Part shown: one piece after another, positions 1 to 61,697 of the stretch
Layout: each line of letters starts with the position of its first letter
How positions within the stretch are numbered: position 1 is the stretch's first letter
From: Pseudomonas sp. B20(2017)
GTDB taxonomy: Bacteria > Pseudomonadota > Gammaproteobacteria > Pseudomonadales > Pseudomonadaceae
NCBI RefSeq assembly: GCF_002113125.1
Contig: NZ_NEJP01000001.1
Span: forward strand, 1-64,000
Direction of reading: 5' to 3'
Length of the DNA stretch: 64,000 nucleotides
Program-made: the position numbers and the translations under genes
Notes under the pieces: model-generated
Databases searched by the model: none
What the model was told of the DNA's origin: nothing
What the model saw: only the letters and a program-made list of their open reading frames with translations

Positions 1-2607
1 GCGTTCGGCGGTGATCTGGCCGTAGGCGCTGTAGGACCAGGCGCGGGTGGCTCCGGTAGGCAGCGTCGTCTGGATCAGCCGGCCAACGGCGTCCCAGGCG
101 TGGCGGGTGACCGCACCATGTTCGTCCTGAACCGTCGTCCGCCGCCCTAAAGCGTCGTAGGAAAACTTCCGAACCCCACCGTCCGGCAAGCTCTCCTCGA
201 CCAACTGGCCCAGGCCGTTCCAGACGAACACATGGCGACCGGAATCCGGATAACGGACCGACAGCAACCGCCCCTGCGCGTCGTAGTGGTAATGGGTGAC
301 GTGGCCGTCCGGATCGACTGCTTCGGTGATATCACCCTGCGCATTACGCCGGTACGTCCACACCGCATCGCCACGTGAACGACTGTGCAGGAAACCGTTG
401 CGGTACTCGTAGGACGTCGGCGCATCGTCCGGCGGAATCAGCGCAATCAGCCGTCCGGCGTCGTCATAGCGGTACTCGGTGACTGCCCCCAGCGCATCCT
501 GCTCGGCGACCAGCCGGCCCTGCGCGTCATAGGCCTTGAGCTGTTCACCACCGTCGGCGGCGACCTGACTCACCAGCCGCGCCGTGTCATCGTGGACGTA
601 GGTTTCCTCAGTCCCATCGACGTAATGCACCGTGACGCTGCCGGCGTCATCCCAGACGTAGCGCGTGTCCATCTGCGAAAACGAGGCCCAGTGCCGCACG
701 CAGCACGCCGCTTTTCCGGCACGCTCCCACTCCCAGAAGAAACTCGCGCCGCCGGCCAGTTGCCGTTGCAGGATGACGTGCTGGTCGTCGTAGTCGTAAC
801 GCTCGCTTTCACCGACCGCGTTGGTCGCCTCGATCAGTCGATGACGGGCATCAAAGCGGTAACTGGCCAGCGTCTGCTCGGTACGCCAGGCAGACTCCCG
901 AAAAACCTGATAATCGACCGCGACCAGATGCGCCCGCTCATAGCGCAGCAACAAGGAACGACCAGCGCCGTTATCCAGGCGCTGAATCCGGTCGGAAAGA
1001 TCCCGATGCACCGTCAGACGATTGCCGTAGGCATCGCTAACCGCAGTCAGACGCCCAGCCCGAAAGTGATAAAACCGCGCCGCGTCCCCCGCCAGCGCAA
1101 CAATCAACTCCTCCGGCTCATCCCCGAGAAAGATCGCCGCCCGCGACAGGCTGTTGTGAACGGCCGGTCGCTCGACATTCGGCAACGGAAACCGCGTCCG
1201 CCGGTTCTCGTGGTCAACCCAGACCACCGAAGCGCCATCAACCTCCAGCCGATGCGCCAGCGAATGGCTCCAGCCAAACCCCAACCCGACATCAATCTCG
1301 GCTGCACTGCTGCGATACAACCGGCTGAACTCGAACGGCAGCAGCCCATCGAGCACACCGTCGGTCAGCGTCAACAACTCTTCGCCAGTGACCATCGACA
1401 CCGGACAGCCATTGGTGCAGGTCAGCGGTGCACAATCGGCGCTGTCACCGTTGGGGTTCTTCGCCTGATCCGGCGTGTCGTCGTGGTGCTCATCCTTTTT
1501 CAAGGAAGCATTACGCCGGGCATCCCAGCGCAGTTGCATGCGACCCTTTTTCACCCCGGCAGCGATGCCCCGTGCGGCGACGGCTTTGTATTGGTTCATG
1601 TAGCCGATGAAGGTGCTAACGATGCCGAACATCGCCTTCACCAGTCGCGCCACCGCCGACAGCAACTGAGCGCCACGCTCCGCCAGACGCAAGGTCAGAT
1701 ACGCAATCCCCGCCCCGGCGCCGACAAAGGTCAGCACAACGCCGATCAACACATCGATCAGCAACTGCACCACCACCATCGATACCGCTTCGGCAGTTTT
1801 CCCGGCAATTTCATTGGGTGGCAGCATCTCCAGCCAGAGGCTGGCAGTACGCAGCAACAAACACAGCGCCGCCTCGTCACTGACCAGTAACTGAAGCTTC
1901 TCCATCATTTCAGGCGCTGTTTCTGCCAGCGCGATCAGCTGTGCAGCGCCACTGCCCAACCGCTCGGCAAACTTTCCGGGATCCTGGAGAATCTCCGACA
2001 GCAACCCGATGCTGTCCCACACCCCCTCGATCGCCGCCCAGCTCCCGGCCAGCATGCCGTTCCCGGCCGCAGTGACCACCGACTGCGACCACTGCGGCTT
2101 GAAACCCTGCCACTCGCTGCGTAGCCAGCCATCCAGCTGCCGGGTCAGGCCATCGTAGGACTCGAACAGCGCATCAACCTGCTTCTCGCTGGCCTCGCCT
2201 TGCACCACCACCCGATAAAATTTGCCCGCTTCACCGGTGAACACCCCTTTGCCCTGAGCATCGAGGGTGACCGACTTGACTGCACCGCCCTCCACCGCCA
2301 CCACATCGACAACGATGTCGCCCAATGGAATGTCGTACGCCGACTCGAACTTGCTCTCGATCTCCATCGGCCCGCTTTCCGGGCATTGCACGACTGCAGA
2401 AGAGAAGCGGTTGTCGTCAATCGCGACTGCCGTACTGTGTTCGCCGAAACGGATGATCCGCTCCATCCCCATTAGCGAAGGCAGATCGGCCGCATGACTG
2501 ACGCCGTCTGCCGAGCGACTGAGCCAGTGCTTCAGCTGTTTGCGATAGAGATCGAGGGTGCGGGGAAAGCTGTCGAGTTCTTGCTCGATGCGGGTGACGG
2601 CATCCAT
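1..2607 (-). CDS. Rhs/YD-repeat polymorphic toxin protein, N-terminal part (3' end outside window)
   Basis: The minus strand is open for 869 codons from an ATG at 2607 to the left edge, so the C-terminal core, variable toxin and any immunity gene are missing. An alpha-helical N-terminal region with a hydrophobic stretch at about residues 279-305 is followed near residue 400 by NGCPVSMVTGEELL, the signature seen just before the Rhs barrel in pseudomonad Rhs proteins. From about residue 620 the sequence runs into tyrosine/aspartate YD repeats such as YDAQGRL, YDDAGRL and YDALGRR. By family these are toxins encapsulated in a shell and exported, often by type VI secretion. No secretion genes are visible here. 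The ATG overlaps the stop of a short upstream ORF (TGATG), so translation is probably coupled. Toxin type cannot be told. Confidence 0.9.
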   Translation of the reverse strand, partial: MDAVTRIEQELDSFPRTLDLYRKQLKHWLSRSADGVSHAADLPSLMGMERIIRFGEHSTAVAIDDNRFSSAVVQCPESGPMEIESKFESAYDIPLGDIVVDVVAVEGGAVKSVTLDAQGKGVFTGEAGKFYRVVVQGEASEKQVDALFESYDGLTRQLDGWLRSEWQGFKPQWSQSVVTAAGNGMLAGSWAAIEGVWDSIGLLSEILQDPGKFAERLGSGAAQLIALAETAPEMMEKLQLLVSDEAALCLLLRTASLWLEMLPPNEIAGKTAEAVSMVVVQLLIDVLIGVVLTFVGAGAGIAYLTLRLAERGAQLLSAVARLVKAMFGIVSTFIGYMNQYKAVAARGIAAGVKKGRMQLRWDARRNASLKKDEHHDDTPDQAKNPNGDSADCAPLTCTNGCPVSMVTGEELLTLTDGVLDGLLPFEFSRLYRSSAAEIDVGLGFGWSHSLAHRLEVDGASVVWVDHENRRTRFPLPNVERPAVHNSLSRAAIFLGDEPEELIVALAGDAARFYHFRAGRLTAVSDAYGNRLTVHRDLSDRIQRLDNGAGRSLLLRYERAHLVAVDYQVFRESAWRTEQTLASYRFDARHRLIEATNAVGESERYDYDDQHVILQRQLAGGASFFWEWERAGKAACCVRHWASFSQMDTRYVWDDAGSVTVHYVDGTEETYVHDDTARLVSQVAADGGEQLKAYDAQGRLVAEQDALGAVTEYRYDDAGRLIALIPPDDAPTSYEYRNGFLHSRSRGDAVWTYRRNAQGDITEAVDPDGHVTHYHYDAQGRLLSVRYPDSGRHVFVWNGLGQLVEESLPDGGVRKFSYDALGRRTTVQDEHGAVTRHAWDAVGRLIQTTLPTGATRAWSYSAYGQITAER

Positions 2608-4540: not shown

Positions 4541-4671
4541 TTATCCACACAAATTGTGGATAACCTTGTGAACAGAGCTGCATTTCAGCGCTGAGAGCCC
4601 CGTTTCATAAGGGCTGCGCTCAGATCGGGCGTTTTTTACTCACATAAAAAATCCCAATATTTCATTGACTT
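4541..4671. promoter_or_regulatory. DnaA-box palindrome module, copy A
   Basis: TTATCCACA (4541-4549) faces TGTGGATAA (4555-4563), two consensus DnaA boxes in inverted orientation. About 44 bases on is a near-palindrome AGCCCC...GGGCT (4596-4615). Then come two A/T tracts (4632-4650) and TTCATTGACTT (4661-4671). The same parts in the same order and spacing recur at 23219-23348. It lies upstream of the YkvA-type gene. DnaA binding is inferred. Confidence 0.65.
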
Positions 4672-4765
4672 GGCGGCTCCGGGCGTCTAGCACGGGCAAC
4701 CTTAAAGTCTAGGACTGCCATGACCGGCATCGGTTCGGTCTGTTTACGCTGACCATCGTCCAGAT

Positions 4766-8919: not shown

Positions 8920-8996
8920 TGGCGCAGCGGACGGGACTCGAACCCGCGACCCCCGGCGTGACAGGCCGGTATTCTAACCGACTGAACTACCGCTGC
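8920..8996 (-). tRNA. tRNA-Asp (GTC), copy 1
   Basis: 77 bases including encoded CCA. Acceptor GCAGCGG pairs with CCGCTGC, the discriminator is G, the anticodon arm reads CCGGCCTGTCACGCCGG (anticodon GTC) and the T-arm contains GGGTTCGAGTCCC. Second in a Val-Asp transcript. Confidence 0.97.
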
Positions 8997-9015
8997 GCGA
9001 AACGCTTGAAACGAA

Positions 9016-9091
9016 TGGTGGGTGATGACGGGATCGAACCGCCGACATTCTGCTTGTAAGGCAGACGCTCTCCCAGCTGAGCTAATCACCC
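9016..9091 (-). tRNA. tRNA-Val (TAC), copy 1
   Basis: 76 bases including CCA. Acceptor GGGTGAT/ATCACCC; anticodon loop CTTACAA within TCTGC/GCAGA (anticodon TAC); T-arm GCGGTTCGATCCCGT. A CATAAT -10-like hexamer lies upstream at about 9113-9118. Confidence 0.97.
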
Positions 9092-9214
9092 TTCGCTTCG
9101 TTACGGGGCGCATTATGCCACAGATTTTCGTAATGTGTTGATTTAATTGAAGTTTTTATCAAAAAAATCCGAAAACCGGTGAAACGACACATCCCGCATA
9201 TACAACTCGAGGCA

Positions 9215-9243
9215 GAAAAAAACCCGCCTTGGCGGGTTTTTCC
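9215..9243 (-). terminator. Terminator of the second tRNA pair
   Basis: AAAAACCCGCC-TT-GGCGGGTTTTT. On the minus strand it has a long T run and sits 40 bases beyond tRNA-Asp copy 2. Confidence 0.88.
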
Positions 9244-9281
9244 GTGGTGACCTGGCGTTCAGTGTTCCAGGTTACCGAATA

Positions 9282-9358
9282 TGGCGCAGCGGACGGGACT
9301 CGAACCCGCGACCCCCGGCGTGACAGGCCGGTATTCTAACCGACTGAACTACCGCTGC
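9282..9358 (-). tRNA. tRNA-Asp (GTC), copy 2
   Basis: The 77-base tRNA matches copy 1, offset by 362 bases. Flanks differ by a few bases, so this is a real tandem copy. Confidence 0.97.
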
Positions 9359-9377
9359 GCTAAACACTTGAAACGAA

Positions 9378-9453
9378 TGGTGGGTGATGACGGGATCGAA
9401 CCGCCGACATTCTGCTTGTAAGGCAGACGCTCTCCCAGCTGAGCTAATCACCC
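9378..9453 (-). tRNA. tRNA-Val (TAC), copy 2
   Basis: The 76-base tRNA matches copy 1. A near-consensus sigma-70 promoter lies just upstream and reads into it on the minus strand. Confidence 0.97.
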
Positions 9454-11689: not shown

Positions 11690-11748
11690 GCCACGCGGGG
11701 ACGACCCTGCGGCTCAATCGAGTTTTCAATCTGGGGACGGCCCCGTCT
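11690..11748 (+). promoter_or_regulatory. Guanidine-II riboswitch (mini-ykkC)
   Basis: Two short hairpins with ACGR loops: GGG-ACGA-CCC around 11698-11707 and GGGG-ACGG-CCCC at 11733-11744, separated by about 25 bases and followed within 15 bases by the ribosome site GGAGG. This is the mini-ykkC architecture. It lies directly before an SMR exporter, the classic target. Free guanidinium is expected to expose the ribosome site. Confidence 0.88.
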
Positions 11749-17765: not shown

Positions 17766-20700
17766 ATGTCGTTGTCCACCGGGCTGATCGCCGCCGTCGC
17801 CCTGGCCTATATGGCCATCATGTTCGCCATCGCCTTCTACGGCGACCGTCGCAGCACACCGCTGCCGCCACGGGTGCGTGCCTGGGTGTACAGCCTGTCG
17901 CTGGCGGTCTATTGCACCAGCTGGACGTTCTTCGGCGCGGTCGGCCAGGCTGCCGAACAACTCTGGTCATTTCTGCCGATTTACCTGGGGCCGATCCTGC
18001 TGCTGCTCGGTGCGCCGTGGGTGCTGCAGAAAATGGTGATGATCAGCAAACAGGAGAACATCACCTCCATCGCCGACTTCATTGCCGCCCGTTACGGCAA
18101 ATCCCAATCGCTGGCGGTGGTCGTCGCGTTGATCTGTCTGGTCGGCGTTCTGCCCTATATCGCCTTGCAACTCAAAGGCATCGTCCTCGGCGTGAACCTG
18201 CTGATCGGTGCCGGTGCCGATGCCATGGGCACCCGCGCCCAGGACACGGCCCTGATCGTGTCGCTGGTGCTGGCGCTGTTCACCATCGTTTTCGGCACAC
18301 GCAACCTCGATGCTACGGAGCACCACCGGGGCATGGTGCTGGCGATCGCATTCGAGTCACTGGTGAAACTGTTCGCCTTCCTTGCCGTCGGCGCCTTCGT
18401 GACGTATGGCCTGTATGACGGCTTCGACGACCTGTTCAATCAGGCGATGCTCGCCCCGCGCCTTGAGGAATACTGGAAAGAAACCATCAACTGGCCGTCA
18501 ATGGTCGTGCAGACCGGCGTGGCGATGATGGCGATCATCTGCCTGCCCCGGCAGTTCCACGTAACGGTGGTCGAGAACATCGACCCGCAGGATCTGCGTC
18601 TGGCCAAGTGGGTGTTCCCCGCCTATCTCGCACTGGCCGCGTTGTTTGTAGTCCCGATCGCCCTGGCCGGTCAGATGATGCTGCCCAGCTCGGTCATCCC
18701 CGACTCCTTCGTTATCAGCCTTCCATTGGCCCAGGCCCACCCGGCGCTGGCAATGCTGGCGTTTATCGGCGGCGCATCAGCGGCCACCGGTATGGTGATC
18801 GTGGCGAGTGTGGCGCTGTCGACCATGGTCTCCAACGACATGCTGTTGCCGTGGCTGCTGCGCCGCAACAACGCCGAACGCCCGTTCGAAGTGTTCCGTC
18901 AGTGGATGCTCTCGGTGCGTCGGGTCAGCATCGTCGTGATTCTGTTGCTGGCTTACGTCAGCTACCGCTTGCTCGGCTCGACCGCGAGCCTGGCGACCAT
19001 TGGCCAGATCGCTTTCGCCGCCGTGACTCAACTGGCCCCGGCGATGCTCGGCGCGCTGTACTGGAAACAGGCCAACCGCCGCGGCGTGTTCGCCGGTCTC
19101 GCCGCCGGCACGTTCCTGTGGTTCTACACCCTGATCCTGCCGATCGCTGCGCGCAGCCTCGGCTGGTCGCTGGACAGTTTCCCCGGCCTCGCCTGGCTGC
19201 ACAGCAACCCGCTGAACCTGCCGATCACCCCGCTGACCCAAGGCGTGGTGCTGTCGTTGGCGGGCAACTTCACGTTGTTTGCCTGGGTCTCTGTGCTGTC
19301 GCGCACCCGGGTGTCGGAGCACTGGCAAGCCGGACGCTTTATCGGTCAGGAAATCAGCGCACGGCCGAGCGCACGCTCGATGTTGGCAGTGCAAATCGAT
19401 GATTTGCTGCAACTGGCCGCGCGCTTTGTCGGTGAAGAACGTGCGCGGCAAAGCTTCATCCGCTTCGCCTATCGCCAGGGCAAAGGCTTCAATCCGAATC
19501 AGAACGCCGACGGCGAATGGATCGCCCACACCGAGCGATTGCTGGCGGGTGTTCTCGGCGCCTCTTCGACGCGAGCTGTAGTAAAGGCCGCCATCGAAGG
19601 TCGGGAAATGCAGCTGGAAGACGTCGTCCGGATCGCCGACGAAGCGTCGGAAGTGTTGCAGTTCAACCGCGCGCTGCTGCAAGGCGCCATCGAAAACATT
19701 ACCCAAGGCATCAGCGTGGTCGACCAGTCGCTGAAACTGGTGGCCTGGAATCGTCGCTATCTGGAGCTGTTCAACTATCCGGACGGCTTGATCAGCGTCG
19801 GCCGACCGATTGCCGACATCATTCGCCACAACGCCGAGCGCGGCTTGTGCGGCCCCGGTGAAGCGGAAGTCCACGTCGCCCGGCGCCTGCACTGGATGCG
19901 TCAGGGGCGCGCCCACACCTCCGAGCGACTGTTCCCCAACGGCCGGGTGATCGAACTGATTGGCAACCCGATGCCCGGCGGCGGTTTCGTCATGAGTTTC
20001 ACCGACATCACCGCGTTCCGCGAAGCCGAGCAGGCTTTGACCGAGGCCAACGAAGGGCTGGAGCAACGGGTCAGCGAACGGACTCAGGAACTGTCGCAAC
20101 TCAACGTCGCGCTGACGGAAGCCAAGGGCAATGCGGAGGCGGCCAACCAATCGAAAACCCGCTTCCTCGCAGCGGTCAGCCACGACCTGATGCAACCGTT
20201 GAACGCGGCACGGCTATTCTCCGCCGCCCTCTCCCATCAGGAAGACGGCCTGAGCGCCGAGGCGCAGAAACTGGTGCAGCATCTGGACAGTTCGCTGCGT
20301 TCGGCCGAAGACCTGATCAGCGACCTGCTGGACATTTCCCGCCTGGAAAACGGCAAGATCAACCCGGATCGCAAGCCGTTCGCGGTCAATGAGCTGTTCG
20401 ATATTCTCGGCGCGGAGTTCAAGGCACTGGCCCAGGAACAGGGCTTGAGCTTCCGGGTACGCGGAAGTCAGTTGCGCATCGACAGCGACATCAAGCTGCT
20501 GCGGCGGATCCTGCAGAACTTCCTCACCAACGCGTTCCGCTACGCAAAAGGCCCGGTGCTGCTGGGCGTGCGTCGACGAAAAGGCGAAATCTGTCTGGAA
20601 GTGTGGGATCGCGGGCCGGGGATTCCGGAGGACAAACAGCAAGTGATCTTCGAGGAATTCAAACGCCTCGACAGCCACCAGACCCGCGCCGAAAAAGGCC

Positions 20701-21236
20701 TGGGCCTGGGTCTGGCGATCGCCGATGGGCTGTGCCGCGTGCTCGGCCATACCTTGCGCGTGCGCTCATGGCCGGGGCGCGGCAGCGTGTTCAGTGTCCG
20801 CGTGCCGTTGGCCAAAGCGCAGACCGTGCAGCCGCCACCGGCGATGGAAATCAATGGCAAGTTGCACAGCGGCGCGCAGGTACTGTGCATCGACAACGAA
20901 GACAGCATTCTGATCGGCATGAACAGTTTGCTCACGCGCTGGGGCTGTCAGGTCTGGACGGCGCGCAACCGCGAAGAATGCGCGGCGCTGCTCGACGACG
21001 GCGTGCGCCCACAATTGGCATTGGTCGACTATCACCTGGATCACGGCGAAACCGGCACCGATCTGATGGCCTGGTTGCGCACAAGACTGGGCGAACCGGT
21101 GCCCGGCGTAGTGATCAGCGCCGACGGGCATCCGGAAACCGTGGCCCAGGTGCATGCAGCGGGCTTGGATTACCTGGCCAAACCGGTGAAGCCGGCGGCG
21201 TTGCGGGCGTTGTTGAGTCGCTATTTGCCGCTCTAG
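17766..21236 (+). CDS. SSS-PAS hybrid sensor histidine kinase (CbrA/ErcS-like architecture)
   Basis: 1156 residues. The first ~520 residues are a multi-helix sodium:solute symporter (SSS/PutP-like) domain, then a PAS domain (about 641-755, ENITQGISVVDQSLKLVAWN), a coiled coil, a HisKA box with SHDLMQPLNAARL (phospho-His about 805), HATPase_c (NAFRYAKG about 918, DRGPGIPED about 950, GLGLGLAIADGL about 980) and a C-terminal receiver (CIDNED, phospho-Asp in LVDYHLDH about 1086). The transporter domain may sense or move a nutrient. No partner response regulator is adjacent. GGGAG lies before the ATG. Confidence 0.92.
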   Translation: MSLSTGLIAAVALAYMAIMFAIAFYGDRRSTPLPPRVRAWVYSLSLAVYCTSWTFFGAVGQAAEQLWSFLPIYLGPILLLLGAPWVLQKMVMISKQENITSIADFIAARYGKSQSLAVVVALICLVGVLPYIALQLKGIVLGVNLLIGAGADAMGTRAQDTALIVSLVLALFTIVFGTRNLDATEHHRGMVLAIAFESLVKLFAFLAVGAFVTYGLYDGFDDLFNQAMLAPRLEEYWKETINWPSMVVQTGVAMMAIICLPRQFHVTVVENIDPQDLRLAKWVFPAYLALAALFVVPIALAGQMMLPSSVIPDSFVISLPLAQAHPALAMLAFIGGASAATGMVIVASVALSTMVSNDMLLPWLLRRNNAERPFEVFRQWMLSVRRVSIVVILLLAYVSYRLLGSTASLATIGQIAFAAVTQLAPAMLGALYWKQANRRGVFAGLAAGTFLWFYTLILPIAARSLGWSLDSFPGLAWLHSNPLNLPITPLTQGVVLSLAGNFTLFAWVSVLSRTRVSEHWQAGRFIGQEISARPSARSMLAVQIDDLLQLAARFVGEERARQSFIRFAYRQGKGFNPNQNADGEWIAHTERLLAGVLGASSTRAVVKAAIEGREMQLEDVVRIADEASEVLQFNRALLQGAIENITQGISVVDQSLKLVAWNRRYLELFNYPDGLISVGRPIADIIRHNAERGLCGPGEAEVHVARRLHWMRQGRAHTSERLFPNGRVIELIGNPMPGGGFVMSFTDITAFREAEQALTEANEGLEQRVSERTQELSQLNVALTEAKGNAEAANQSKTRFLAAVSHDLMQPLNAARLFSAALSHQEDGLSAEAQKLVQHLDSSLRSAEDLISDLLDISRLENGKINPDRKPFAVNELFDILGAEFKALAQEQGLSFRVRGSQLRIDSDIKLLRRILQNFLTNAFRYAKGPVLLGVRRRKGEICLEVWDRGPGIPEDKQQVIFEEFKRLDSHQTRAEKGLGLGLAIADGLCRVLGHTLRVRSWPGRGSVFSVRVPLAKAQTVQPPPAMEINGKLHSGAQVLCIDNEDSILIGMNSLLTRWGCQVWTARNREECAALLDDGVRPQLALVDYHLDHGETGTDLMAWLRTRLGEPVPGVVISADGHPETVAQVHAAGLDYLAKPVKPAALRALLSRYLPL

Positions 21237-21245
21237 CAGAGCGGC
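21227..21245. terminator. Shared hairpin at convergent stops
   Basis: GCCGCTC-TAGCA-GAGCGGC contains the TAG stops of both the sensor kinase (+) and rmuC (-), which overlap. No T run follows, so it may act as a mutual RNA 3' end or a weak terminator. Confidence 0.5.
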
Positions 21246-22726
21246 TTATATTCAGGCAGTTCGACCAAGCCGTCGGCGTCGGTCATCGCGCGTTCCAGCA
21301 GATCCGCCGGCAGGCTTTTGCTGGCCCGCGCGCCGAGCAACTTGAGCTGTTCGCTGCGGCTGACCAGATTGCCGCGCCCTTCCGTCAGCTTGTTGCGCGC
21401 CGCGCTGTAAGCCTTGTCCAGTTGCTGCAAGCGATTGCCGACTTCGTCCAGATCCTGAATGAACAACACGAACTTGTCGTACAGCCAGCCGGCGCGCTCG
21501 GCAATTTCCCGGGCGTTCTGGCTCTGGCGCTCCTGCTTCCACAGGCTGTCGATGACCCGCAGGGTGGCGAGCAAAGTCGTCGGACTGACGATCACGATGT
21601 TACGGTCAAAAGCCTCCTGAAACAGCGCCGGCTCGGCTTGCAACGCGGCGGAAAACGCCGCTTCGATGGGCACGAACAGCAAGACGAAATCGAGGCTGTG
21701 CAGGCCCTCCAGCCGCTTGTAATCCTTGCCGGCCAGGCCTTTGACGTGGCTGCGCAGGGACAGCACGTGCTGCTTCATGGCGATCTGGCCGATGGCGTCG
21801 TCGTCCGCCGCCACGTACTGCTGATACGCCGTAAGGCTGACCTTGGAGTCGACTACCACCTGCTTGTCGCCCGGCAGATAAATGATCACGTCCGGCTGGA
21901 AACGCTCGCCGTCCGGGCCTTTTAGATTGACCTGGGTCTGGTACTCGCGGCCCTTCTCCAGCCCGGCATGCTCAAGCACGCGCTCGAGAATCAGCTCGCC
22001 CCAGTTGCCCTGGGTTTTCTGGCCTTTCAGAGCGCGGGTCAGGTTGGTCGCTTCATCACTGAGGCGCAGGTTCAGTTGTTGCAGACGCTCCAGTTCCTTG
22101 GCCAGCGAGAAGCGCTCGCGGGCTTCGGCCTGATAGCTTTCCTCGACACGTTTTTCGAACGACTGGATGCGCTCCTTCAACGGGTCGAGCAGCTGGCCGA
22201 GGCGTTGCTGGCTGGTTTCAGCGAAGCGTTGTTCGCGTTCATCGAAGATCTTGCCGGCCAGTTCGGCGAACTGGGCGCGCAGTTCGTCGCGGGAACCTTG
22301 CAGGTCATCCAGGCGTTGTTGATGGCTTTCCTGTTGCTCGCGTAGTTCGGCATTCAACGACGCCGCCTGGGCGTCCAGGCGCCGTAATTCGGCTTCCTTA
22401 TTGGCGCGTTCGATGTTCCAGGCGTGGGCGGCGTCACGGGCGTCGTCGCGCTCGATCTGCAACAGCTCGACTTCCCGGCGCGCGGCCGCGAGATCTGCTT
22501 GTTTGGAGGCATTGGCCTGGCCGAGGTCGGCGATTTCATCGCGACTGGCTTCGAGCTGTGCAGTAAGGCCGTCCTGGGCCATCTGCGCCATGGCCAGCCG
22601 CTCCTCGAGCAATGCGACTTCAGACTGGTTCTGACTGGCCCGACGTTGCAGTTGCCAGGCCAGTGCCAGCAGCGGCACCGCCGCGCCTGCCAGCCCCAGC
22701 AAGATGCTGGTCAAGTCCATCGCCAT
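21233..22726 (-). CDS. rmuC: DNA recombination protein RmuC
   Basis: 497 residues: one N-terminal membrane helix (about 6-25), a long coiled coil (about 30-210, rich in E/Q/A heptads), then the RmuC core (about 215-450) with NWGELILERVLEHAGL, QPDVIIYLPGDKQVVVDSKVSL and the nuclease-like (PD-(D/E)XK-type) residues therein. The family limits inversions at short inverted repeats; its exact reaction is unsettled. Its stop overlaps that of the convergent kinase gene. Confidence 0.95.
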   Translation of the reverse strand: MAMDLTSILLGLAGAAVPLLALAWQLQRRASQNQSEVALLEERLAMAQMAQDGLTAQLEASRDEIADLGQANASKQADLAAARREVELLQIERDDARDAAHAWNIERANKEAELRRLDAQAASLNAELREQQESHQQRLDDLQGSRDELRAQFAELAGKIFDEREQRFAETSQQRLGQLLDPLKERIQSFEKRVEESYQAEARERFSLAKELERLQQLNLRLSDEATNLTRALKGQKTQGNWGELILERVLEHAGLEKGREYQTQVNLKGPDGERFQPDVIIYLPGDKQVVVDSKVSLTAYQQYVAADDDAIGQIAMKQHVLSLRSHVKGLAGKDYKRLEGLHSLDFVLLFVPIEAAFSAALQAEPALFQEAFDRNIVIVSPTTLLATLRVIDSLWKQERQSQNAREIAERAGWLYDKFVLFIQDLDEVGNRLQQLDKAYSAARNKLTEGRGNLVSRSEQLKLLGARASKSLPADLLERAMTDADGLVELPEYKPLC

Positions 22727-23111: not shown

Positions 23112-24065
23112 AAAGCACTGTGGGACAGATCGGAAGGCGCGCCACTCTACTCTTTTTTTCGCACAGGTAAAGTCGAAAAAAACCCGGCACGCCCGTGCTA
23201 GAGCAAGCGCTCGGGACAATCCACAGAAGCTGTGGATAACTCAGTGGACAACCGCCCTCCAGTCGCCGCAAAGCCTTATGGAATGGGGCTCGCAGTCAAA
23301 CTGACGATTTTTTCACCAGTTAAAAAAAGCGATGTTTTTCATTGACTTAAACTTTCGATGCAGGCAGCCATCGGAGTCAGGATCGTTATGACAGCGCCGT
23401 TACAGTCTGCGCAACTAATGTGCACAAGTACCTGTTACGCGGTTATATCGATGCGCCTTTTCGGGTCGTTTTGGCATTCAGGCTGGGGACAAGCCCCTGC
23501 GCCGAGCTTCAGCGCCGGCCATGTCGTGGCGACCGACGGTCATGATGTGAGCCAGATCGGGGCAGACGCTGGGCCTGGGTAATGTCCCCCGGAATTTTTT
23601 TGATCAGCGGGTTTGCCTTCCCGGGATCGTTCCGTTAGTATCCGCAGCGTTAGTACCAAGCTGAAAGTCAATTCCGGTCGAACACACCCCACGGTCAGCC
23701 TTCTTTCACAGAAGCCGCCACCGACAAAAGCGGGAGCGACCCCTCGATGGTTTCCAGGTAAATCTTGCGACAACACAGCCTTTGAATCGAATGCAAAGGG
23801 TGTTGCGAAGACCACTTACTCTGACCGAACCAACCTGCAAATTGATCAGGATCTTCACCCCGGGCCCAGAACCTCTGCCCTCGATGTGTTGCCTGTCCTC
23901 CTAAGTACCTACCTGCCAGCCCAAGCGCGCCCACTTTTATAGCGCTCGAACTGGCTGCCTTGTTCCAGTCGGGTTCTTCGTTCGACCAATGGTGGTTGAC
24001 GTTACTGGAACGTTTTAACGTTGCACGGTTCTTATCCGTGTCATTTGTAGGAACACCTAATAACT
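23112..24065. other. 950-base intergenic region without a convincing gene
   Basis: Besides the DnaA-box module at 23219-23348, I find no credible coding frame: ORFs of 74 and 109 codons lack ribosome sites and look non-proteinaceous. The base composition is closer to intergenic than to the GC3-biased neighbours. A long leader for the small gene at 24066, or a structured RNA, is possible; no known RNA family is recognised. Confidence 0.5.
23219..23348. promoter_or_regulatory. DnaA-box palindrome module, copy B
   Basis: ATCCACAG-AAG-CTGTGGATAA (23219-23239), then a near-palindrome AGCCTT...GGGGCT (23272-23290), A/T tracts (23307-23340) and TTCATTGACTT (23338-23348). Order and spacing match copy A at 4541-4671 to about one base. 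It lies upstream of the small Sel1 gene. Confidence 0.65.
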
Positions 24066-37955: not shown

Positions 37956-38044
37956 GGGGGAGAGCTCTCCGTTGAGGCTGGATAACGGCGGGCAGGCACA
38001 AGAATAGACGGCAACAAGCCTGGCATCGCCCACCGTGATGCCGC

Positions 38045-38250
38045 TGGATGGATCAGGCCGGTCTCCGGGCTCATGAGCGGCTGGTGCCTGGCTGCGCGCC
38101 TTCCCGCTTTACGCAGTGGCATCAGACGCAGCTTTTACTCATTTACCGTTGCGGGGGCAGCGCCGGGATCGTGAGGGTTCATCGCTTGAAGACCCGCCTC
38201 ACCGGCTTCCCTGTTTCACTCTGTCGACATGCGCCACAGAGCACCTGAAA
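38045..38250 (-). promoter_or_regulatory. Cobalamin (B12) riboswitch
   Basis: On the minus strand the order is right for a class-I cobalamin aptamer: an upstream GGTGCTC stem start (about 38230), GAAACAGGGAAGCCGGTGA (about 38200-38218), the B12 box GCTGCCCCCGCAACGGTAA (about 38145-38165), and GGAGACCGGCC near 38055. It lies 90 bases before cobO, so adenosylcobalamin is expected to switch the whole operon off. Confidence 0.95.
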
Positions 38251-38410
38251 CAAGCCGCGAAGGTTAGAGGGTTGGGGGTGGAGCGTCAATTGAAGAGGGA
38301 CTTGTGCGGCGAATAACTGCCGCCGATCAATTAACTGACGCCAATGTTGTGCCACACTGTCATGAGTGATATCAAAGGGCCATGCTTTTTGACTGCAGAG
38401 AGCACATCAC

Positions 38411-42049: not shown

Positions 42050-42754
42050 TTACCAGCCCAGGGTTTCTTTCAGGAAGGGAATGGTCAGCTTGCGCTGAGC
42101 CTGCAAAGAGGCCTGGTCGAGCTGCTCCAGCAGATCGAAAAGCGCGCTCATGCTGCGGGTACCGCGAGTCAAAATAAAATGCCCGACTTCGTCGGTCAGG
42201 TGCAGACCACGACGGGACGCGCGCAATTGCAGGGCACGCAATTTGTCTTCATCGGAGAGAGGACGCATCTGGAAGATCAGCGCCAGGGTCAGGCGCGATT
42301 TCAGGTCGGCGAGTTTGATCGGCAGTTCACGCGGCGAAGTGGACGCCGCAATCAGCAGACGTCGGCCGCTGTCACGCAGACGGTTGAACAGATGAAACAT
42401 CGCCTCTTCCCAGTCCGCCTTGCCAGCTATCACCTGCAAGTCATCCAGGCAGACCAGTTCGTACTGTTCGAGGTTGTCGAGAATTTCAACGCCGCGATCC
42501 ATCAACTCGGCCAGCGGCAGGTACACCGCCGGCTCACCCATCTGTTCGAAGCGCAGGCACGCGGCCTGCAACAGATGCGTACGCCCTACCCCGTGCTTGC
42601 CCCACAAATAGATCAGGCTTTCGGTCCAGCCGGCGTCGGCTTCGCATAGACGCTCGACATAGCCGAGTGCAGCGGCATTGGCGCCTGGGTAGTAGTTGAT
42701 GAAGGTGGCGTCGTCACGCAGACGCACACCTAGGGGCAGCTGAATCGGTTTCAT
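42050..42754 (-). CDS. hda: DnaA regulatory inactivator Hda
   Basis: 234 residues, DnaA-like AAA+ domain only. LYLWGKHGVGRTHLLQAA is the degenerate P-loop, LVCLDDLQVIAG Walker B, and QLPLGVRLRDDATFINYYPGAN the N-terminus with the beta-clamp-binding QLPLGV (residues 5-10). Stimulates ATP hydrolysis on DnaA after initiation. Downstream of perM on the minus strand, 210 bases apart. Confidence 0.95.
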   Translation of the reverse strand: MKPIQLPLGVRLRDDATFINYYPGANAAALGYVERLCEADAGWTESLIYLWGKHGVGRTHLLQAACLRFEQMGEPAVYLPLAELMDRGVEILDNLEQYELVCLDDLQVIAGKADWEEAMFHLFNRLRDSGRRLLIAASTSPRELPIKLADLKSRLTLALIFQMRPLSDEDKLRALQLRASRRGLHLTDEVGHFILTRGTRSMSALFDLLEQLDQASLQAQRKLTIPFLKETLGW

Positions 42755-61620: not shown

Positions 61621-61697
61621 GCTTTTTACCGTCTTCGTTAGGTACTGCGCATTCGGCGCTGCGCTCTTTATGAGTGCCGCGCCACCTGTGACTGCTG

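What the first reader, a model, noticed from the sequence alone, without database searches (positions are those of the whole stretch)
4541..4671. Twice-occurring DnaA-box module with fixed internal spacing
Two inverted DnaA boxes, then a 20-base near-palindrome 44 bases on, then A/T tracts, then TTCATTGACTT about 109 bases from the box centre. The same elements with the same spacing occur at 23219-23348, 18.7 kb away, both upstream of minus-strand genes. Such matched spacing is hard to get by chance and suggests a functional module: a DnaA-binding or DnaA-titrating site, or a DnaA-controlled promoter. hda at 42050-42754 shows the DnaA system is in the region.
Basis: partly seen in the sequence, partly recalled or inferred. 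Interest (0 to 1): 0.7.

Follow-up and report, generated by a model that had tools for sequence, protein, structure and literature searches.

The report
Paired DnaA-reactivating DARS sites in Pseudomonas
Two matching stretches of non-coding DNA look like DARS sites, the places where E. coli recharges its replication starter protein DnaA, and their layout recurs across Pseudomonas and many other proteobacteria.

Summary
Each module is a three-box DnaA cluster: box I, 5 bp, inverted box II, 3 bp, box III. This is the spacing and orientation that define the core of E. coli DARS1 and DARS2, where ADP-DnaA is recharged to ATP-DnaA. A core profile gives two strong hits in the 6.14-Mb genome, both here. 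DNA similarity finds module 1 in 93 of 99 Pseudomonas genomes and module 2 in 99 of 99, own genome included. A profile from Pseudomonas cores hits 215 of 276 genomes of the class. 'A/T tracts plus TTCATTGACTT' lies where 58 of 108 divergent non-Pseudomonas cores carry an IHF consensus with at most one mismatch (+118..122; controls average 0.5). An exact Fis consensus sits at +85..87 in 34 of 108 (controls 0.35). The layout is core, Fis-like, IHF-like; E. coli DARS2 is reported as core, IHF, Fis. The promoter reading is weak: distance to the next gene varies from 20 to 77 bp. Protein binding and ADP release were not tested. My paper searches showed no report of DARS in Pseudomonas, but the founding 2009 paper is not held.

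The parts
4541..4549 (+). module 1, DnaA box I (TTATCCACA)
   Evidence: same register as E. coli DARS1 box I
4555..4563 (-). module 1, DnaA box II (TTATCCACA on minus), 5 bp from box I
4567..4575 (-). module 1, DnaA box III (CTGTTCACA on minus), 3 bp from box II
   Evidence: conserved in the genus
4596..4615 (.). module 1, 20-bp near-palindrome; weakly conserved, role unknown
4627..4641 (.). module 1, Fis-like site at +86 (GGGCGTTTTTTACTC, one mismatch to GnnYAnnnnnTRnnC)
4646..4651 (+). module 1, A-tract upstream of the IHF-like site
4660..4672 (+). module 1, IHF-like site at +119 (TTTCATTGACTTG, two mismatches to WATCAANNNNTTR)
23217..23225 (+). module 2, DnaA box I (CAATCCACA, degenerate)
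23231..23239 (-). module 2, DnaA box II (TTATCCACA on minus)
23243..23251 (-). module 2, DnaA box III (TTGTCCACT on minus)
23271..23290 (.). module 2, 20-bp near-palindrome; weakly conserved
23303..23317 (.). module 2, Fis-like site at +86 (GACGATTTTTTCACC, two mismatches; weak on its own)
23322..23328 (+). module 2, A-tract upstream of the IHF-like site
23337..23349 (+). module 2, IHF-like site at +120 (TTTCATTGACTTA, two mismatches)

Best explanation
Each module is a DARS (DnaA-reactivating sequence). ADP-DnaA binds boxes I, II and III; the head-to-head pair on boxes I and II loosens the bound ADP; apo-DnaA leaves, picks up ATP and becomes competent to start replication at oriC. Bending by Fis at about +86 and by IHF at about +120 would fold the flank back onto the core and gate the reaction by growth phase and cell cycle. 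Shown here: the core anatomy, its rarity in the genome, its conservation in the genus and class, and the fixed positions of the Fis and IHF consensus across divergent cores. Inferred from E. coli work: ADP release, protein binding, gating and the effect on initiation timing.
For: Core spacing and orientation are identical to E. coli DARS1 (L106:1108-1142) and DARS2 (L107:1636-1670). The DARS2 place was fixed by the deletion primers printed in PMC4585315. The DARS definition (same box spacing in both, box I opposite to II and III) is in PMC5742627. A profile from 30 Pseudomonas cores gave two strong hits in the own genome, found E. coli DARS1 at 25.4 bits, E 8.9e-7, in a search of 16 loci, and hit 215 of 276 genomes of the class and 99 of 99 Pseudomonas, own genome included in both counts. 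With both gaps left free over 150 combinations, 70 of the 86 matches in 140 genomes had gaps (8,3). In 108 non-Pseudomonas cores: IHF consensus with at most one mismatch at +118..122 in 58 (43 control windows: mean 0.47, max 2); exact Fis consensus at +85..87 in 34 (mean 0.35, max 3). Five divergent Pseudomonas module-1 copies have a perfect IHF consensus at +120 or +121. The sites lie mid-arm between oriC and terminus, median 0.58 and 0.56 of an arm. An IHF alpha gene over the family cut-off is present in the genome; fis was not searched for.
Against: No binding or ADP-release data. In the window both IHF-like sites have two mismatches. The module-2 Fis-like site has two, a level reached by a mean of 25.7 of 108 cores in control windows, so it is weak alone. 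TTTCATTGACTTR is nearly invariant in module 2, tighter than IHF usually needs, so another protein may read it. The profile did not list the canonical E. coli DARS2 core: in L107 it hit only the second core (12.2 and 8.7 bits) and two weak places at 1847-1861. That second core, L107:1952, may lie in the part of DARS2 reported dispensable (I do not know the exact boundaries), so spacing alone need not mean function. Only 58 of 140 genomes had any match to the strict pattern, and 61 of 276 had no profile hit. 24 of 108 cores have neither Fis nor IHF at one mismatch. Six of 99 Pseudomonas genomes gave no module-1 match. In 9 of 46 module-1 rows (one a reverse reading) no IHF-like match with at most two mismatches lies at +118..121.
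Confidence: 0.8

Rival explanations
1. DnaA titration or datA-like site: the boxes hold DnaA or help hydrolyse its ATP, lowering active DnaA.
For: DnaA boxes plus an IHF site also describe datA (PMC5742627, passages).
Against: The E. coli stretch fetched for datA (L108, glyV-queG) has no match to the three-box pattern, even the loose form; the profile reaches 14.6 bits there. Titration does not need fixed core, Fis and IHF spacing.
Confidence: 0.1
2. DnaA-controlled promoter of the neighbouring minus-strand gene, or of a plus-strand transcript reading TTGACT as a -35 box.
For: Module 1 lies about 21 bp from the start codon of a DUF1232 gene that is its neighbour in all 17 divergent relatives looked at; TTGACT resembles a -35 hexamer.
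Against: Distance to that gene varies from 20 to 77 bp over 45 loci while internal spacing mostly holds. At module 2 the small next gene was not found in 5 of 20 loci. In many of the more distant genomes the module-2 match ends near 23350, right at the TTGACTT. No Rfam hit there.
Confidence: 0.06
3. DARS core is real, but the distal site is read by a factor other than IHF or Fis (for example a Pseudomonas H-NS-like protein).
For: Near-invariance of TTTCATTGACTTR in module 2 and two mismatches to the IHF consensus.
Against: Same register as clear IHF consensus in other proteobacteria and in five divergent Pseudomonas module-1 copies.
Confidence: 0.15

Closest known systems
E. coli DARS1 (bioD side)
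   Same: Three-box core with identical spacing and orientation. In 5 of 7 other loci that also hold a bioD relative within about 3 kb, the core has an IHF consensus with at most one mismatch at +121 (Kosakonia L113, Citrobacter L114, Erwinia L159, Photorhabdus L174, Kluyvera L202; not L165, L205).
   Different: E. coli DARS1 itself has only a two-mismatch IHF-like site at +121 and no Fis consensus at +85..87; it works in vitro without helpers (PMC5742627).
E. coli DARS2 (rppH-mutH)
   Same: Same core spacing; IHF and Fis sites at set distances.
   Different: IHF consensus at +93 and +109 (my assignment, from the reported 3-bp gap) with Fis reported beyond it; here Fis-like at +86 comes first and IHF-like at +119/+120 second.
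E. coli datA
   Same: DnaA boxes plus an IHF site.
   Different: No three-box DARS pattern in the stretch L108.
Vibrio cholerae crtS
   Same: Compared with DARS2 in print as an initiator-remodelling site (PMC6139311, passage).
   Different: Binds RctB and Lrp; not tested here.

Membership tests
DARS | Three DnaA boxes, box I opposite to II and III, same spacing as DARS1/DARS2 | tested here: met
   I-5-II-3-III in both modules, DARS1 and DARS2; definition from PMC5742627. Module 2 box I has two mismatches.
DARS | Intergenic, between oriC and terminus | tested here: met
   Module 2 mid-arm in 25 of 27 Pseudomonas chromosomes used; exceptions G029 (0.06) and G014 (0.81); five of the 32 genomes were left out because not in one contig. 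The position in the window's own genome (33 contigs) was not determined.
DARS | Promotes ADP release from DnaA | not testable with these tools
   needs purified proteins
DARS | Loss delays initiation | not testable with these tools
   needs deletion strains
DARS2 type | IHF and Fis sites at set distance from the core | tested here: inconclusive
   IHF-like sites with two mismatches and Fis-like sites with one and two in the window; clear consensus in relatives
DARS2 type | Order core - IHF - Fis | tested here: not met
   Order here is core - Fis-like - IHF-like
datA | datA box arrangement around an IHF site | not tested
   Only the converse was tested: the DARS pattern is absent from the datA stretch L108
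DnaA-controlled promoter | Fixed distance to a conserved start | tested here: not met
   20 to 77 bp over 45 module-1 loci

The most novel reading that the evidence does not exclude
DARS is an ancestral proteobacterial device with one blueprint (DnaA core at 0-34, Fis at +86, IHF at +120). Many lineages keep it, Pseudomonas carries two full copies, and the E. coli DARS2 layout used as the textbook case is a derived rearrangement.
Probability: 0.5. Interest if true: 0.75.

Novelty: new variant of a known kind. Interest (0 to 1): 0.62.

Why it matters
DnaA reactivation has been worked out mainly in E. coli. A fixed layout seen from sequence alone across many families makes it testable in Pseudomonas and elsewhere whether initiation timing rests on the same switch. 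It also suggests which parts of the E. coli sites are general.

Tried and rejected
Plasmid search with module 1: no match. Rfam at gathering thresholds: seven hits in the window, none at the modules. Promoter, datA and titration readings were tested or weighed and ranked low (see rivals). I first took the E. coli core at L107:1952 for DARS2; the primers in PMC4585315 showed that the published core is at L107:1636. My script labels 'mfd' (17766-21236) and 'gap' (21233-22726) were wrong: Pfam gives a hybrid histidine kinase and RmuC. The E. coli genome could not be searched whole, so E. coli was tested on three fetched stretches only.

Limits of counts: the profile was built from 30 cores that I picked (both window cores and 28 of the divergent loci; L082 and L100, without a pattern match, and several others were left out). 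25 Pseudomonas loci were dropped for the count of 108. The flank counts also show smaller piles: over all 133, forward IHF at +140..149 (9) and reverse IHF at +100..109 (8) and -30 (7); in the 108, reverse +100..109 (7) and -30 (7), reverse +50..59 and +350..359 (5 each), forward +60..69 (5). With two mismatches allowed, reverse IHF at +118..122 is 12 of 108 (control mean 3.3, max 8). With one mismatch, Fis matches also pile up inside the core itself; exact ones peak only at +85/+86. Copy numbers per Pseudomonas genome (73 with two, 24 with three, 2 with one) were counted by eye; some third hits may be reverse readings of near-palindromic cores. Eight chromosome lengths were rounded, and E. 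coli oriC was placed from memory.

Papers: PMC4245941 (passages, sections 3 and 12), PMC8682772 (passages, section 16), PMC5742627 (passages, section 20), PMC4585315, PMC10380432, PMC12371093, PMC6139311, PMC8203912 (passages); the rest in search listings only. Fujimitsu 2009 and Sugiyama 2019 are not held. That no DARS report for Pseudomonas was seen rests on listings 14, 41, 42, 65, 66, 67 and 78, and on zero uses of the word Pseudomonas in the main text of five DARS papers; the 35 papers were not opened one by one.

Full report
What is there. At 4541-4575 and 23217-23251 lie three DnaA boxes in the order I (+), 5 bp, II (-), 3 bp, III (-). About 50 bp further come a T-run with a Fis-like sequence (+86), an A-tract, and TTTCATTGACTTR at +119 and +120. 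In the 6.14-Mb genome the three-box pattern with gaps (8,3) occurs only at these two places. A profile built from 30 Pseudomonas cores, both window cores among them, scores 51.6 and 43.5 bits here and at most 18.8 elsewhere. TTTCATTGACTTR occurs exactly only at these two places; 12 more have one mismatch.

Genus. Of 99 Pseudomonas genomes, own genome included, 93 had a match to module 1 and 99 to module 2 by DNA similarity at E <= 0.001; some of these cover little more than the core. 99 of 99 had a core hit at E <= 1e-5: two in 73, three in 24, one in 2 by my count of the table. Of 24 pattern-scan loci titled Pseudomonas (one of them titled Pantoea), 18 match one of the modules, the best being P. 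crudilactis at 90% over 501 bases. In alignments the boxes, the T-run with its flanks and, in module 2, TTTCATTGACTTR stand out, and in many of the more distant genomes the module-2 match ends near 23350. All 49 module-2 loci have their best IHF-like match, two mismatches, at +119 to +121. For module 1, 46 loci gave 46 rows (L100 none, L092 twice): 37 have a match with at most two mismatches at +118 to +121, and 9 do not; four have a perfect IHF consensus at +120 and one (L101) at +121; 43 match the Fis consensus at +86 with at most one mismatch. These loci are related, so the counts show conservation and are not independent trials.

Identity. E. coli DARS1 and DARS2 share a three-box core with the same spacing, box I opposite to II and III (PMC5742627 section 20). 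I fetched both, placed the DARS2 core by the deletion primers printed in PMC4585315, and found the same I-5-II-3-III register. The two IHF sites of DARS2, described as 3 bp apart (PMC4245941), fit consensus hits at +93 (reverse) and +109 (forward). The datA stretch has no such core. Caveat: the Pseudomonas profile finds DARS1 (25.4 bits) but did not list the canonical DARS2 core.

Wider distribution. The profile hits 215 of 276 genomes of the window's class at E <= 0.001. With both gaps left free, 58 of 140 genomes had a match; 70 of the 86 matches had gaps (8,3), and eight had (8,1), five of them second readings of the same place. The pattern read backwards gave 2 matches.

Layout. I took 133 thinned cores with 300 bp on one side and 400 on the other. 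A forward IHF consensus piles up at +118 to +122, far above every other position; smaller piles exist and are listed under limits. Leaving out Pseudomonas, where the idea came from, 58 of 108 cores have it with at most one mismatch (43 control windows: mean 0.47, max 2) and 25 of 108 without mismatch (mean 0.02, max 1). A Fis consensus lies at +85 to +87 in 34 of 108 without mismatch (mean 0.35, max 3) and in 57 with at most one (mean 4.0, max 10). 31 of 108 have both with at most one mismatch; 24 have neither. The reverse IHF orientation is at 1 of 108 there with one mismatch allowed. The common plan is core, Fis, IHF, whereas E. coli DARS2 is reported as core, IHF, Fis. In 5 of 7 other loci holding both a core and a bioD relative, the IHF site lies at +121 with at most one mismatch (L113, L114, L159, L174, L202); in L165 the best is at +111, and L205 has two mismatches.

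Position. With dnaA as the marker for oriC, module 1 lies at a median 0.58 of an arm in 24 chromosomes and module 2 at 0.56 in 27. In 19 of 24 both lie on the same arm, 15-26 kb apart in 16 of these. In five they lie on opposite arms, four at 0.47-0.62 on either side and one (G014) nearer the terminus. G029 (0.05/0.06) and G014 (0.87/0.81) are exceptions. Symmetric inversions around oriC would produce this for any gene, so it is only supporting evidence.

Mechanism (inferred from E. coli). ADP-DnaA on the head-to-head boxes I and II releases ADP and leaves as apo-DnaA to bind ATP (PMC8682772 and PMC5742627, passages). IHF and Fis bound at set distances stimulate this at DARS2 (PMC4245941, passages). 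None of it was tested in Pseudomonas here.

Doubts. The window's own IHF-like sites each have two mismatches and its module-2 Fis-like site has two. Module 2's distal sequence is more rigid than IHF needs. A second E. coli core of the same spacing may lie in the part of DARS2 reported dispensable. That many proteobacteria have DARS-like sequences is in print (PMC10380432, passage), and conserved spacing of DARS2 core, IHF and Fis in E. coli-proximal species is too (PMC5742627). So the new parts are the Pseudomonas pair and the core-Fis-IHF plan, as far as my searches of the held library show.

Noticed in passing
L107:1952-2083 (E. coli rppH-mutH): A second core with DARS spacing and a one-mismatch IHF consensus at +119, 316 bp from the published DARS2 core. 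The same next to mutH or rppH, IHF at +118/+119 with one mismatch, in Siccibacter L173, Klebsiella L214, Pectobacterium L197, Symbiopectobacterium L181 and Proteus L130; weaker in Enterobacter L220 and Superficieibacter L221 (two mismatches), and at +107 in Shewanella L125.
   Followed up: partly
L103, L104, L105: A further core-like locus in some Pseudomonas species, at another place, with an A/T-rich IHF-like stretch about 120 bp away; only L105 matches the strict three-box pattern.
   Followed up: partly
window 8920-9453: Tandem duplication of a tRNA-Asp/tRNA-Val pair.
   Followed up: no
window 38039-38263 (-), 11693-11745 (+), 61622-61692 (-): Cobalamin riboswitch, guanidine-II riboswitch and sucC RNA motif.
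   Followed up: no
L168: Four DARS-like cores about 300 bp apart in an Alcaligenaceae bin.
   Followed up: no
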